A stretch of DNA of 64,000 nucleotides from NCBI RefSeq assembly GCF_900115075.1, contig NZ_FOVG01000004.1, positions 310,001 to 374,000 on the forward strand, in the 5' to 3' direction. The notes beneath the pieces are model-generated. The model did no database searches. It was not told where the DNA came from and saw nothing but the letters and a program-made list of their open reading frames with translations. The position numbers and the translations under genes are program-made. This document shows, piece by piece, positions 4,278 through 60,101 of this stretch; the first letter of the stretch is position 1, and the number at the start of each line of letters is the position of its first letter. This DNA is from Candidatus Pantoea varia (lineage in GTDB: Bacteria > Pseudomonadota > Gammaproteobacteria > Enterobacterales > Enterobacteriaceae).

Positions 4278-4437
4278 TCGTTACCCTCTCCCATCCGGAC
4301 TGTAACCGTCGGCCCCGGAATTACACCGGATCTGCTGACCTTTATCTCTCTTTTCATCAAGATAAAGCGCTCGCGGGCTTTCAGCCTAAGCTGATTTACC
4401 GCCGGTGGGGAATTGCGCCCCGCCCTGAGAATAAGCC
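4278..4437 (-). promoter_or_regulatory. FMN riboswitch (RFN element) of ribB
   Basis: Reading the minus strand, the element begins GGCTTATTCTCAGGGCGGGG, passes through CCCCACCGGCGGTAAAT, and ends AGTCCGGATGGGAGAGGGTA. These are the conserved P1, P2 and P6 segments of the RFN aptamer. It lies in the ribB leader about 110 bases before the start codon. FMN binding is expected to shut off ribB expression. Confidence 0.96.
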
Positions 4438-23146: not shown

Positions 23147-23222
23147 GGCCCCTTAGCTCAGTGGTTAGAGCAGGCGACTCATAATCGCTTGGTCGCTGGT
23201 TCAAACCCAGCAGGGGCCACCA
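23147..23222 (+). tRNA. ileX: tRNA-Ile2 (anticodon CAU, lysidine-modified)
   Basis: The 76-base gene has a seven-base acceptor stem (GGCCCCT with AGGGGCC), encoded CCA, and an anticodon loop CTCATAA. It is nearly identical to E. coli ileX, whose CAU anticodon is modified to lysidine to read AUA as isoleucine, so it is not a methionine tRNA despite the CAU. It also sits downstream of mug, as in E. coli. In this genome it marks the boundary of the accessory region to the right. Confidence 0.95.
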
Positions 23223-23250
23223 AAATTTAGCTTTTAAATCATATATTTAG

Positions 23251-23278
23251 GCCACTTAACCGCTAAGTGGCTTTTTTA
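23251..23278 (+). terminator. Terminator of ileX
   Basis: The arms gccactta and taagtggc with a five-base loop are followed by six T residues, 28 bases after the tRNA. Confidence 0.9.
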
Positions 23279-23348
23279 TTACTAAAGCCAATGCCCCCTT
23301 TTTGTCCCCCCACAACCCCCTAACTAGGTAATGGATCGCGGCTCAGGT

Positions 23349-23486
23349 ATGCAAAAAAGAATTTACATGCCCCTCACCAAGTGCAAAGAATGTAAAAAGG
23401 GGGTCACAACACCTGCAGAAGCTTTCTGGCGCTGTCTAAAAACTAAGCAGATTATTGATGTCAGGGCCTACGATGCAAAGCTATAA
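23349..23486 (+). pseudogene. Small zinc-ribbon-like ORF, probably a remnant
   Basis: A 45-codon frame reads MQKRIYMPLTKCKECKKGVT and continues through a third Cys in FWRC. From the Met at 23367 the pattern MPLTKCKEC resembles the start of small zinc-ribbon proteins common in enterobacterial islands, but the second CxxC pair is missing, so zinc binding is doubtful. No strong ribosome site is visible. It lies 43 bases before the DUF6338-type gene. Confidence 0.45.
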
Positions 23487-23528
23487 TCCTTACTTTTAGC
23501 CATTCAATGATTTTCACACACTGAAGGA

Positions 23529-24161
23529 ATGACTGTGGACGTACTTGAAAAAGGTAAATTACTTTTATTCGTACTATTTATTATGCCCGGCTTTATCAGC
23601 ATGAGAGTTTATCGGCTTTTTCATCCAGTTGCAGATAACGATACATCAAAAATATTAATTGACGTAGTATCATACAGTTGCATTAACTACTCATTTTTGC
23701 TAATACCCATTTATTTAATTGAAACAAATAAGATTATCGACTCACATCCATTCTGGTATTACATCTTTTATCTCTTAGTTCTAATTATTGTTCCCGTTTT
23801 TTTACCCATACTCCTGCTGATGATTCGACAGAGCAATCGAATTAGGCAGATACTCCCTCATCCTATGGGACGTGCATGGGATTATTTTTTCTCAACGAAC
23901 CAATGTTGCTGGGTTTTAGTAACACTCAAAAATGGGAAAAAATATGGCGGCTTATATAGCTACAACTCTTTTGCATCAAGTAGGCCGGAACCAGAACAAC
24001 TCTATCTAGAAAAACATTGGGCTTTGGATAACGATGGCGACTTCGATCATGAACTGACCGATACACTAGGCATTATCATATTGACTAATGAAATAGAAAG
24101 TGTTGAGTTTATTAAGTTGCAAGAACCTACAACCAGCAATAGAGAGACGAAAGATGCCTGA
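23529..24161 (+). CDS. DUF6338-type membrane protein
   Basis: The protein (about 210 residues) has three hydrophobic segments at about 8-28, 42-62 and 72-98, with the motif MPGFISMRVYRLF in the first. A soluble C-terminal part follows with WVLVTLKNGKKYGGLY and the SSRPEPEQLYLEKHW segment. This layout and these motifs are what I recognise as DUF6338, a family of unknown function. AAGGA abuts the ATG at 23529, so the GTG at 23535, six bases from AAGGA, is an equally good start. The gene is visibly AT-richer than its neighbours, which points to transfer. It overlaps the next gene by eight bases. Confidence 0.8.
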   Translation: MTVDVLEKGKLLLFVLFIMPGFISMRVYRLFHPVADNDTSKILIDVVSYSCINYSFLLIPIYLIETNKIIDSHPFWYYIFYLLVLIIVPVFLPILLLMIRQSNRIRQILPHPMGRAWDYFFSTNQCCWVLVTLKNGKKYGGLYSYNSFASSRPEPEQLYLEKHWALDNDGDFDHELTDTLGIIILTNEIESVEFIKLQEPTTSNRETKDA

Positions 24162-24324
24162 AGAAAAACCAGTCAGCAAACCAGGGTTTGCAAACGACGG
24201 CTGGCAACCTGTGAACAAGGGTCACCAACCAACCAGCAGACCAAACCAGCAAAATAACGGGTATCAACCTCCCAGCCAAACTCAACAGACACAACAGGTT
24301 TCCCCACCTCCTAAGAAGCGTTAA
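24154..24324 (+). CDS. Small GWQP/GYQP-repeat protein
   Basis: This 56-residue frame encodes a Pro/Gln/Asn-rich, probably disordered protein. The degenerate motif appears as GWQPVNKGHQP and again as GYQPPSQ; the end is PPPKKR. It has no signal sequence or membrane segment. The start at 24154 lies inside the last codons of the DUF6338-type gene, giving an eight-base overlap and likely translational coupling. Similar short proteins next to DUF6338 genes are familiar to me from other enterobacteria, but no function is known. The overlap suggests the two act together. Confidence 0.7.
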   Translation: MPEEKPVSKPGFANDGWQPVNKGHQPTSRPNQQNNGYQPPSQTQQTQQVSPPPKKR

Positions 24325-24390
24325 TGCAAATGTTAGCCGATAGTTAGTTGAATTATTTCAGTCAACAACGAATCTTAAAAATACTGCATA

Positions 24391-24423
24391 GCCCGCAAAT
24401 CAACTGGTTGAGCGGGCTTTTTA
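24391..24423 (+). terminator. Terminator of the DUF6338 cassette
   Basis: The stem gcccgc / gcgggc continues inward with tcaac / gttga and is followed by a T run. It closes the two-gene cassette. Confidence 0.85.
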
Positions 24424-24804
24424 AGTTATCCCTTACTTCCGAGCAGTTAGATCCTCACACATCGCATAAATAAAATTATTCATTAATTATCAGTTAATTA
24501 TGGAAATCACCGCCATGTACTCGATCCTCGAAAACTGAAAAACACTGAAATTTTTTTCACTCTTTTCAGTTGGCGGACTCTGGCCATACCGTTTGTAAAA
24601 AAATCAAACTGAAAAATTTTTATGATGCAAAACCTGCAGGCGGGTGCGGTGTAGCGCCGATTTTGTCTGCGCAGCGATTATTCTGCCGGGGCTGACGCGC
24701 AGCCAGTGCCACGCTCTGCGGATGATCTGGTTGGGGTAATCGTGCGAGATGGCCGCGCCTTTGCGTGGCGCATCGTGCGTCTGAGGCGTTCTGGTGACGG
24801 GCAA
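24424..24804. other. AT-rich intergenic stretch with no supported gene
   Basis: The first half is AT-rich and has repeated actgaaaa-type words near 24535-24615. The second half is GC-richer and has an unsupported minus-strand frame (24604-24804, starting MPVTRTPQTHDAPRKG) lying downstream of the VgrG-like fragment. I could not assign this frame to a family; it may be remnant coding DNA of a phage or secretion locus. Confidence 0.5.
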
Positions 24805-24841: not shown

Positions 24842-25402
24842 TTACTTGCCGATGACGGGGGAATATTTCGTACTGAGCGTGGCGGCCTGCTGGCCACTCT
24901 GTGCGATGGCGCTGCTGTTCGTGGGCTGTCCGGTTGACGGGTGCGTATGGCTGGCCAGCTGCTGCACAAGCGCCACGGTATCAAGCATCAGCTGGGCTAC
25001 ATTAATCTTTTCCGAACCAATCCACACCACCGGCGCGATAATTTCCTGACGCGTCCCGGCAATGCTCTGGCGCAGCTGGCCAATTTTTTCAGTCATCGCC
25101 TGACCGACTTTTATCGCCGCGCTGCCAGTGACGTCCGTTTCCGCATTACCGCCCACTGTAATCAGCCGGCTCTGCTGTGCGGCCATGCTGTAATTACCGG
25201 TCGTCACGTGCTGGATTGCTCCGGCCATCAGGGACGCCGTGCCGATCACGGTCGTTCTGTCAGTGGCTTTGACCGTCGTTTCCCTGCTGACAAGCTCACG
25301 CGTTTCCGTATCGGCTTTAACTTCCCGGCTCATGGACGTTTCACGGATGGCCTGATCGGTCTGGCGCTCCCAGTCTCCCGCCTGTGTTAACCGAAACGAT
25401 GC
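24842..25402 (-). pseudogene. C-terminal fragment of a VgrG / phage tail-spike-like protein
   Basis: From the ATG at 25333 the frame gives 163 residues, and family-like reading continues upstream without a start to about 25400 (LTQAGDWERQTDQAIRET). The sequence is rich in Thr/Val repeats typical of spike beta-prisms (TTVKATDRTTVIGTASLMAG) and ends with a His-Thr-His segment (ASHTHPSTGQPTNSS) and STKYSPVIGK, as many type VI VgrG or phage baseplate spike proteins do. The N-terminal 400 or more residues expected of such a protein are missing. It is a truncated remnant with its own terminator intact. Whether the source was a T6SS or a prophage cannot be decided. Confidence 0.6.
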
Positions 25403-25566
25403 CGGTTCCCCACCTGAATGAAGAAGATGAGCGTGAACATATTCAACAGGTTCTCAGGGAAACTAACGGCGTGGTCGCCGGTCCTTGCGGGGCAGCACAG
25501 CGACTGGGATTAAAGCGCACTACCCTGCGGTCGCGAATGAAAAAGTTAGGTATTGCTGCGCACTGA
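25384..25566 (+). pseudogene. C-terminal fragment of an FhlA-like sigma-54 activator
   Basis: The frame contains EREHIQQVLRETNGVVAGP and then GAAQRLGLKRTTLRSRMKKL, the Fis-type DNA-binding helix-turn-helix that ends sigma-54-dependent activators such as FhlA and HyfR. The AAA+ and sensory domains are absent: family similarity starts about 25400, where the oppositely oriented VgrG-like fragment also begins. The two remnants therefore meet at a recombination scar. A GTG at 25384 could start a 60-residue peptide, but no ribosome site is evident and a free HTH is unlikely to be functional. Confidence 0.75.
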
Positions 25567-26619: not shown

Positions 26620-27309
26620 ATGCGTAAATTACTTTTAAGCTCTGCCATAGTAATGGCAATGGCATCTGTCAGCTTATCTGGTCAGGCGGCGGAGTCTACC
26701 ACCCTGTCAGTCACCGGTACGATCATCCCCGCGACCTGCGACGTCGCGCTGAGTTCACCAAGCATTGAGCTGGGTAATATCCCGGCATCAACGCTGACTA
26801 ATGATATGAATGTCCAGACGGTCAGCAATGTCACACTGAGTGTCGATTGTGACGCTCCGGCGGCTATCGCGGTACAGACCACCGATAACCGCATCTCAAG
26901 CGCAATGACTGTTGCAGAGATTGAAAGCCAGATGAAGGCCACCTATGTCGGTTATACTGATGCCAACTATTTTGGATTGGGATTGGATAAATCCAGCAAT
27001 AAAGTCGGTGCATTACTTCTGACTATTACTGGCTCAACCAACGACGGCACAGCAAATGCAAATGTGCTGACCAGTACAGATAAAGCAGCCTGGAAAGCAG
27101 TGACCGTATCCCCACAAACAGGTCTGTCTCTGACAAAAAATGATTACTTTGCCTCTGCAGTTGATGCAAATGCCACCACACCAGCGGCCTATACTCAGGC
27201 AACCTATACCATTGTCCCGGGTGTTGCTCTGAAAAAAGGCGACCAATACCCTTCTGGTGAGTCAGTCAGCATCGACGGTAACGTCACCTTCTCGGTTGTT
27301 TATCTTTAA
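26620..27309 (+). CDS. Fimbrial major subunit, DUF1120 type
   Basis: This 229-residue protein has a signal peptide cleaved after about residue 23 (SGQAAES). The mature start TTLSVTGTIIPATCDVAL has the conserved first Cys, with a second Cys in SVDCDAP that would form the pilin disulphide. The C-terminus ends GNVTFSVVYL, an alternating hydrophobic beta strand as recognised by chaperones and ushers. The length and pattern fit DUF1120 subunits of beta-clade fimbriae such as E. coli Yhc; the clade call is from memory. It is first in a four-gene operon and is followed by a hairpin, consistent with higher expression than downstream genes. Confidence 0.85.
   Translation: MRKLLLSSAIVMAMASVSLSGQAAESTTLSVTGTIIPATCDVALSSPSIELGNIPASTLTNDMNVQTVSNVTLSVDCDAPAAIAVQTTDNRISSAMTVAEIESQMKATYVGYTDANYFGLGLDKSSNKVGALLLTITGSTNDGTANANVLTSTDKAAWKAVTVSPQTGLSLTKNDYFASAVDANATTPAAYTQATYTIVPGVALKKGDQYPSGESVSIDGNVTFSVVYL

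Positions 27310-59721: not shown

Positions 59722-60101
<380 letters not shown>

What the first reader, a model, noticed from the sequence alone, without database searches (positions are those of the whole stretch)
23349..24324. AT-rich tRNA-adjacent cassette: zinc-ribbon remnant, DUF6338-type membrane protein, overlapping GWQP/GYQP micro-protein
Directly downstream of ileX lies a short operon, closed by its own terminator, of a three-helix membrane protein with a soluble C-terminal domain and a 56-residue disordered protein with repeated GWQP/GYQP-like motifs, overlapping by 8 bp. Composition is AT-rich against the flanks and the location is a tRNA 3' side. A conserved, coupled pair of uncharacterised genes at a tRNA hotspot is the best candidate in this window for an undescribed accessory system, such as envelope stress or phage defence. 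That function is speculation; only gene order, overlap and composition are seen.
Basis: partly seen in the sequence, partly recalled or inferred. Interest (0 to 1): 0.55.

Follow-up and report, generated by a model that had tools for sequence, protein, structure and literature searches.

The report
Phage-borne membrane protein with tiny partner
Next to a tRNA gene sits a relic of a P2-like prophage carrying a two-gene unit, a membrane protein with an Sm/Hfq-like domain and a tiny disordered GYxP-repeat protein; the pair recurs together in distant bacteria, in some of them beside phage-defence genes, so it is a good but untested candidate part of bacterial antiviral systems.

Summary
Window 23529-24161 encodes a DUF6338 protein (132 bits); 24154-24324, overlapping by 8 nt, encodes a 56-aa GWQP/GHQP/GYQP protein; both lie 3' of an ileX-type tRNA in AT-rich DNA before a terminator-like hairpin. 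The zinc-ribbon remnant is real (about 378 bp deleted from a 498-bp gene). The cassette is cargo of a decayed P2-like prophage: a baseplate-gpV fragment follows.

The pair is not local. A small GYxP ORF follows DUF6338 in 94 of 99 intact loci (53 of 57 clusters at 80% identity) against 34 of 697 control ORFs; both genes are under purifying selection. The model has three membrane helices and a C-terminal barrel whose best matches are Sm/LSm/Hfq. DUF6338 is rare (5 of 5426 E. coli genomes) and mobile. Neighbours elsewhere include TIR+caspase, CHAT, CD-NTase, E1/E2/JAB and reverse-transcriptase genes.

Best explanation: a mobile, defence-associated membrane effector with a disordered regulatory partner. 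Defence, membrane damage and binding are inferred, not shown. The one paper found that names DUF6338 reports proline-rich small proteins in its operon in P. stutzeri.

The parts
23147..23222 (+). tRNA gene, CAT anticodon (ileX-type); integration site
   Evidence: ARAGORN and Rfam; at least 33 of 60 same-genus genomes carry a downstream duplicate of its 3' end (hand count)
23249..23279 (+). terminator-like hairpin (23249-23273) with T-run after the tRNA
23367..23486 (+). remnant of a 165-aa zinc-ribbon membrane-protein gene: about 68 nt of its 5' end joined to about 44 nt of its 3' end
   Evidence: alignment with full copies in L001, L003 and L011; the shortened stretch aligns at 85-89% in L049, L005 and L051; zinc-ribbon models match L003 only below their cut-offs
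23529..24161 (+). DUF6338 protein: three membrane helices (residues 2-31, 39-66, 74-101) and an Sm-like barrel (about 127-196); possible GTG start at 23535
   Evidence: Pfam, AF2, Foldseek and VIA-align, dN/dS
24154..24324 (+). 56-aa disordered GWQP/GHQP/GYQP protein ending PPPKKR; overlaps DUF6338 by 8 nt
   Evidence: conserved partner, purifying selection, pLDDT about 30
24390..24422 (+). terminator-like hairpin with T-run closing the cassette
24842..25333 (-). C-terminal fragment (163 aa) of a P2-like baseplate protein gpV
   Evidence: PHROG 2258, E 3e-36; 94% to L049, 92% to L050, 83% to L040
24325..25393 (.). DNA matching P2-like prophages; the match to L049 ends at about 25393
   Evidence: blastn, 88% over 1106 columns to L049

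Best explanation
The cassette is the attachment-site-proximal cargo of a P2-like prophage that integrated at the tRNA and then lost most of itself. The cargo is a mobile two-protein unit. DUF6338 is an inner-membrane protein with three helices and, by positive-inside reasoning, a cytoplasmic C-terminal Sm/LSm-like domain. The overlapping gene makes a short disordered protein with up to three or four GYxP-type motifs and a proline-rich tail. Proposed action: the small protein holds or tethers the Sm-like domain through its repeated motifs; a phage-triggered signal, supplied by a partner enzyme where one is encoded (TIR/caspase, CHAT, CD-NTase, E1/E2/JAB, RT) or by an unknown cue in solo copies such as this one, frees or assembles DUF6338 in the membrane, which is damaged, and infection aborts. 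Shown here: the pairing and its conservation, purifying selection, accessory and mobile location, predicted architecture, and defence-type neighbours in some loci. Inferred: physical interaction, trigger, membrane damage, and any defence phenotype.
For: Pair conserved: 94 of 99 intact loci, 86 with two or more motifs, against 34 and 3 of 697 control ORFs; 53 of 57 clusters, 46 with two or more motifs. Purifying selection against L005, L007, L049 and L051: DUF6338 dN 0.012-0.031, dS 0.15-0.35; small ORF dN 0.023-0.031, dS 0.27-0.41. In the window's clade the upstream genes are gone but the pair stays constrained. Sm-like barrel. Mobile settings: P2-like prophages or relics, plasmids, Tn7-like element. 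Defence-type neighbours: ThsB-TIR and caspase after the pair in Proteus L042 and Lysobacter L074, and diverging from DUF6338 in Curtobacterium L195 (caspase there by annotation only); CHAT in Streptomyces L047 (annotation) and Alteromonas L072; SMODS CD-NTase in Mesorhizobium L048, with a SLATT protein by annotation; E1/E2/JAB in Acinetobacter L079 and E1/JAB in L041; RT in L084 and, with one small ORF between, L060; KAP NTPase in L119; GajA downstream in L053. Precedent for membrane helices plus a soluble barrel as an effector: OptE/Cap15 (passages of PMC12657218).
Against: No phenotype exists. The window's copy has no recognisable sensor or signalling gene beside it, nor do prophage copies such as L007 and L012. 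PADLOC has no model matching the pair. AF2 of an artificial fused chain gave pLDDT about 30 over the GYxP part, so no docking was predicted. The neighbour sets were chosen by hand, and the control compares numbers of redundant family models, not loci. Many neighbours match nothing: 5 of 10 proteins had no Pfam match over a cut-off, 5 of 10 and 4 of 10 had none. In 8 distant plasmid loci, 7 of them actinobacterial, a plausible GYxP-type ORF was found in 4. Five of 99 intact loci lack a strict GYxP ORF. The fold match is modest (best Foldseek E 9.4e-3).
Confidence: 0.42

Rival explanations
1. Lysogenic-conversion or superinfection-exclusion gene of P2-like phages: the membrane protein alters the envelope so that related phages cannot inject, with no cell death, and the small protein is a chaperone or stabiliser.
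For: Cargo of P2-like prophages next to the attachment site; copies without recognisable partner genes in prophage contigs such as L007 and L012; P2-like phages carry exclusion genes such as old and tin (section read in PMC9122126).
Against: The pair also sits beside TIR+caspase, CD-NTase and E1/E2/JAB genes on plasmids and chromosomes, and in Actinomycetota, which an injection blocker would not need.
Confidence: 0.2
2. Toxin-antitoxin-like addiction pair: DUF6338 is a membrane toxin neutralised by the small protein; it stabilises prophages and plasmids rather than defending.
For: Two co-encoded genes, overlapping in the window and some relatives, mobile settings, repeated small-protein copies in Acinetobacter.
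Against: The small gene comes second and is multiplied in some loci, unlike the usual antitoxin-first order (order recalled, no call); no toxicity data.
Confidence: 0.13
3. Membrane-anchored RNA-binding Sm ring that captures phage or host RNA at the membrane; the GYxP protein is a recruitment tail.
For: The barrel's best structural matches are Sm/LSm/Hfq, many of them RNA-binding.
Against: Best Foldseek E is only 9.4e-3; a shared fold shows no function; some LSm domains bind peptides (6f9w, LSM14 with a 4E-T peptide, is in the list); RNA-contact residues were not tested.
Confidence: 0.15
4. A stress, envelope or metabolic accessory pair unrelated to phages; defence neighbours reflect only that mobile islands collect many genes.
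For: Islands are mixed; [quoted passage not shown] stutzeri cultures (passage of PMC10433244).
Against: ThsB-TIR with caspase recurs beside the pair or DUF6338 in two phyla; E1/JAB or RT genes end only 10-14 nt before DUF6338 in L041, L079 and L084.
Confidence: 0.1

Closest known systems
DUF6338 (Pfam PF19865)
   Same: The window protein is a clear member (132 bits).
   Different: Pfam gives no function. The Sm-like domain, the conserved GYxP partner and the defence-type neighbours come from this work.
Proline-rich small proteins in a DUF6338 operon of Pseudomonas stutzeri (PMC10433244, one passage read)
   Same: Three proline-rich small proteins, detected by mass spectrometry, in a predicted operon with a DUF6338 gene.
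   [quoted passage not shown] stutzeri. I did not see those sequences, so identity with the GYxP family is untested; the GYxP partner itself is widespread.
OptE / Cap15 S-2TM-beta effectors (PMC12657218, passages read)
   Same: Membrane helices followed by a soluble beta-barrel, encoded in immune operons; both are reported to disrupt the membrane.
   Different: Two helices and a nucleotide-binding barrel there; three helices and an Sm-like barrel here, plus a disordered partner, and a nucleotide synthase seen only in L048 among the neighbours scanned.
TIR plus caspase-like immunity, type IV Thoeris (recalled; only the reference of Rousset 2025 seen)
   Same: ThsB-TIR and caspase genes lie beside DUF6338 in L042, L074 and L195.
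   Different: DUF6338 would be an additional membrane component there, and it occurs without them elsewhere.
Nuclease-protease pairs recurrently acquired by unrelated immune systems (PMC12799240, search listing with start of abstract only)
   Same: A two-gene module found with otherwise unrelated immune systems.
   Different: Different proteins; here a membrane protein and a disordered micro-protein.
Bacterial gasdermins (PMC9612521, passages read)
   Same: Membrane-damaging effectors often encoded next to caspase-like proteases.
   Different: No gasdermin match in Pfam; a protease was recognised beside only a few DUF6338 loci.

Membership tests
DUF6338 (PF19865) | Score above the Pfam cut-off over the domain | tested here: met
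   132.1 bits against 26.5, profile 7-203 of 205
Sm/LSm/Hfq fold | Helix and small bent barrel like solved Sm proteins | tested here: inconclusive
   Best VIA Z 8.4 (1i5l, 2.5 A over 73), Hfq 4jrk Z 7.4; Foldseek best E 9.4e-3, list led by Sm proteins; no sequence match in the PDB at E up to 1
Sm/LSm/Hfq fold | Ring oligomer and RNA binding | not testable with these tools
   Needs biochemistry
S-2TM-beta effectors (Cap15/OptE) | Two membrane helices fused to the nucleotide-binding barrel | tested here: not met
   The model has three long membrane helices
S-2TM-beta effectors (Cap15/OptE) | Linked nucleotide synthase | tested here: not met
   None beside the window copy; one SMODS gene among 66 scanned upstream neighbours elsewhere
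Known phage-defence systems in PADLOC-DB 2.0.0 | Match to a defence model | tested here: not met
   0 families at E up to 1 for all three ORFs
P2-like prophage cargo | Lies between attachment site and P2-like structural genes | tested here: met
   tRNA on one side, gpV fragment on the other, same order as L049, L050 and L040
P2-like prophage cargo | Flanking attL/attR repeats | tested here: not met
   No second copy of the tRNA 3' end in the window at up to 3 mismatches; read as decay of the prophage
Toxin-antitoxin | Toxicity relieved by the partner | not testable with these tools
   Needs expression assays

The most novel reading that the evidence does not exclude
DUF6338 plus the GYxP micro-protein is a transferable membrane-killing module of bacterial immunity: an Sm-like barrel on a three-helix membrane anchor, restrained or scaffolded by a disordered GYxP peptide, and plugged into unrelated sensors (TIR-caspase, CHAT, CD-NTase, ubiquitin-like conjugation, reverse transcriptase), with proteolysis or modification of the peptide as a plausible common trigger.
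Probability: 0.27. Interest if true: 0.82.

Novelty: new variant of a known kind. Interest (0 to 1): 0.6.

Why it matters
A two-gene unit that keeps its odd disordered partner from Enterobacterales to Alphaproteobacteria and some Actinomycetota, while its neighbours change, looks like a reusable part. If it is an immune effector, it would add a membrane-effector architecture (Sm-like barrel plus micro-protein) to bacterial immunity, give a role to a Pfam family of unknown function, and show that GYxP micro-proteins, annotated only as hypothetical in the records read here, are real genes. It allows simple tests: delete either gene, mutate GYxP, add or remove the TIR-caspase neighbours.

Tried and rejected
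Chance ORF: rejected; the small ORF has dN far below dS and is conserved in 53 of 57 clusters.

Core gene: rejected.

Docking of the GYxP peptide on the barrel in a fused chain: not predicted, pLDDT about 30; this neither supports nor excludes binding.

Trypsin-like partner in Cupriavidus L082, suspected by eye: 0 Pfam families, so not used. L082, L091 and L092, which lack the small ORF, have longer DUF6338 C-termini; a fused partner is a guess.

PDB by sequence: no match. Cap15/OptE does not appear in the fold lists, which proves nothing.

A mixed alignment of DUF6338 and small proteins (A7) was misaligned and dropped.

Literature: 'DUF6338' gave 1 paper; 'GYQP' gave 20, none on this pair by title. 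The capped lists show no title on the pair. Most papers of subscription journals are not held.

Rows dropped before counts; 11 viral loci left out; 10 repeat contigs already counted, and one (L134, the contig of L016, with a frameshifted DUF6338) was dropped altogether; also 1 cut locus (L085) and 3 broken ones (L093, L040, L138). The window itself and the unnamed genome-search loci (L004, L017-L038) are not in that count; of the latter, 14 were read, where loci on the minus strand were read the wrong way, so only L017, L018, L027, L030 and L033 are informative: small GYxP ORFs in L017, L018 and L027, a PPPP-type one in L030, none in L033. One search's 42 of 45 includes one false 249-aa ORF (L082) and misses L065, whose motifs read SYxP; a 37-aa ORF of L195 with GYTP was taken as spurious; L196, with a truncated DUF6338, was not read. 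Of 82 upstream and 64 downstream neighbour ORFs listed, 66 and 47 were scanned, chosen by hand, leaving out short or doubtful ones; family tables show only the first 25 rows.

Full report
What is there. A tRNA with CAT anticodon (ileX-type) lies at 23147-23222, followed by a terminator-like hairpin. Then come a 39-codon zinc-ribbon remnant (23367-23486), a DUF6338 gene (23529-24161, PF19865, 132 bits) and a 56-codon ORF (24154-24324) overlapping it by 8 nt. A hairpin with a T-run closes the cassette (24390-24422, z -3.06). GC of 23331-24430 is 0.394 against 0.553 for the window; 0.4% of 1258 overlapping windows of 1100 bp are as low, the cassette's own included.

It is prophage cargo. The 163-aa ORF at 24842-25333, minus strand, is the C-terminal part of a P2-like baseplate protein (phrog_2258, E 3e-36). 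It is 94%, 92% and 83% identical to copies in L049, L050 and L040, where it follows the cassette in the same order and orientation (the DUF6338 of L040 is broken). DNA similarity to L049 runs to about 25393. No second copy of the tRNA 3' end exists in the window, so the rest of the prophage seems to be gone. All 60 same-genus genomes have a match to the tRNA region, and at least 33 carry a second copy of the tRNA 3' end downstream on the same contig and strand, mostly 3-38 kb away (my hand count from the cut listing): a busy integration site. Two same-genus handles have contigs exactly as long as two Pantoea records, so the genus is probably Pantoea.

The zinc-ribbon remnant is real. In E. coli L001 and L003 and viral contig L011, a 165-aa protein with a zinc-ribbon-like start and a membrane helix, and an 85-aa protein, precede DUF6338 (zinc-ribbon models match L003 only below cut-off). 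The window keeps about 68 nt of the 5' end and 44 nt of the 3' end of the first gene and lacks the second. The shortened stretch aligns at 85-89% in L049, L005 and L051, so the loss is shared by the close relatives, yet DUF6338 and the small ORF stay under purifying selection (dN/dS about 0.05-0.12 for DUF6338 and 0.06-0.11 for the small ORF against four close relatives; dS with more distant ones is saturated). The pair by itself therefore seems to be the maintained unit here.

The pair is conserved far beyond the genus. DUF6338 relatives were taken from E. coli genomes, viral contigs, plasmids, one phage record and genome contigs. In 99 intact loci, 94 have an ORF of 35-100 codons with at least one G[YWFH]xP motif starting -60 to +300 nt from the DUF6338 stop, and 86 have two or more motifs; of 697 other ORFs in the same loci, 34 and 3 do. 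After clustering DUF6338 at 80% identity, 53 of 57 clusters have it and 46 have two or more motifs; the four without are L065, which has SYxP instead, L082 with L092, L091, and L136. The spacing varies: an 8-nt overlap in the window's closest relatives, small gaps or overlaps elsewhere. Acinetobacter loci L075, L079 and L081 have three such ORFs in a row. MAG contigs labelled Nitrospirota, Synergistaceae and Sumerlaeota have it too (bins may be contaminated). In 8 remoter plasmid loci, 7 of them Actinomycetota, a plausible GYxP-type ORF was seen in 4: L189, L190, L191 and L192. A proteomics paper reports three proline-rich small proteins in a predicted operon with a DUF6338 gene of P. stutzeri, detected by mass spectrometry, which its authors found only in that species (passage of PMC10433244); I did not see those sequences.

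Architecture. AlphaFold2 with a 68-sequence alignment gives mean pLDDT 77.3 and pTM 0.54, three long helices (2-31, 39-66, 74-101) and a C-terminal barrel of seven short strands. The barrel's best Foldseek matches are Sm and LSm proteins, with Hfq lower down, though no E-value is below 0.001 (best 9.4e-3); VIA-align gives Z 8.4, 2.5 A over 73 residues, for an archaeal Sm protein and Z 7.4 for Hfq, values that the tool itself calls middling. This is a good but not conclusive fold assignment. Arginines near the ends of helices 1 and 3 suggest a cytoplasmic barrel (inference). The small protein has no predicted structure, and an artificial fused chain showed no docking.

Distribution. DUF6338 is rare and mobile: 5 of 5426 E. 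coli genomes (the 3 loci read are prophages or prophage relics by my reading of the annotation); over the Pfam cut-off in 4 of 60 genus, 6 of 295 family and 8 of 369 class genomes, the window's own genome included each time; 24 of 72,556 plasmid records; 1 of 50,697 phage records. In the P2-like elements read, the unit lies next to the attachment site or integrase, not at the cos-proximal Q-A hotspot described for E. coli P2-like phages (section read in PMC9122126).

Neighbours. Genes adjacent to DUF6338 elsewhere include ThsB-type TIR plus caspase (L042 inside a Tn7-like element, L074, and divergently L195), CHAT (L047 by annotation, L072), a SMODS CD-NTase with an annotated SLATT protein (L048), E2/E1/JAB in L079 and E1/JAB in L041, ending 14 and 10 nt before DUF6338 (L045 similar by annotation), reverse transcriptases (L084, 11 nt upstream; L060 with a small ORF between), a KAP NTPase (L119), a GajA gene downstream in L053 (the GajB hit of the same set is probably its neighbour) and a convergent DUF4062 gene in L046. 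Against PADLOC, 66 upstream and 47 downstream neighbours matched 252 and 205 models, with GajA at 3e-273; 113 random ORFs from 20 control regions, mostly of enterobacterial genomes, matched 24 models, best 3.9e-53. These are redundant models, not independent loci, and the neighbours were picked by hand, so this is indicative only. Many other neighbours matched no family. Phage genes also occur among the neighbours (Mor, GemA), as expected of prophage cargo.

How it may work. The layout resembles effectors with membrane helices and a barrel such as Cap15 and OptE, which disrupt the membrane (passages of PMC12657218), but DUF6338 has three helices, an Sm-like barrel and a nearly constant disordered partner, and a nucleotide synthase was seen beside it only in L048, so it is not filed in that family. 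Co-occurrence with caspase, CHAT and JAB enzymes makes cleavage or modification of the small protein a plausible trigger, as adjacent proteases do for bacterial gasdermins (passages of PMC9612521). For the window's solo copy the trigger is unknown; superinfection exclusion remains the main rival.

Verdict.

Noticed in passing
window 25384-25566: A 60-aa Fis-type helix-turn-helix fragment (HTH_8, E 4.7e-9), probably the broken end of a regulator, at the edge of the prophage relic.
   Followed up: no
window 26620-27309: A DUF1120 protein, perhaps the start of a fimbrial gene group downstream of the relic (the fimbrial reading is recalled).
   Followed up: no
window 4279-4436 and 59723-60101: FMN riboswitch and RNase P RNA, both ordinary.
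   Followed up: no
L075 3754-4217, L079 6604-7096, L081 6625-7139: Acinetobacter loci carry three tandem, divergent GYxP micro-proteins after one DUF6338.
   Followed up: partly
L082 6001-6789, L092 5989-6768, L091 5144-5854: DUF6338 proteins without a small partner have longer C-termini, perhaps a fused or replaced partner.
   Followed up: no
L046 5971-7928: DUF6338 and two small ORFs lie convergent to a DUF4062 gene; DUF4062 was recently reported as an antiphage NADase (abstract of PMC13174449).
   Followed up: no
L195 1-3770: Curtobacterium plasmid: TIR, caspase and TIR genes beside DUF6338, similar in content to the Proteus Tn7-like cargo in L042.
   Followed up: partly
L030 1480-2239: A remote DUF6338 protein has a different proline-rich small ORF (PPPP-type, no GYxP) overlapping it by 8 nt.
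   Followed up: no
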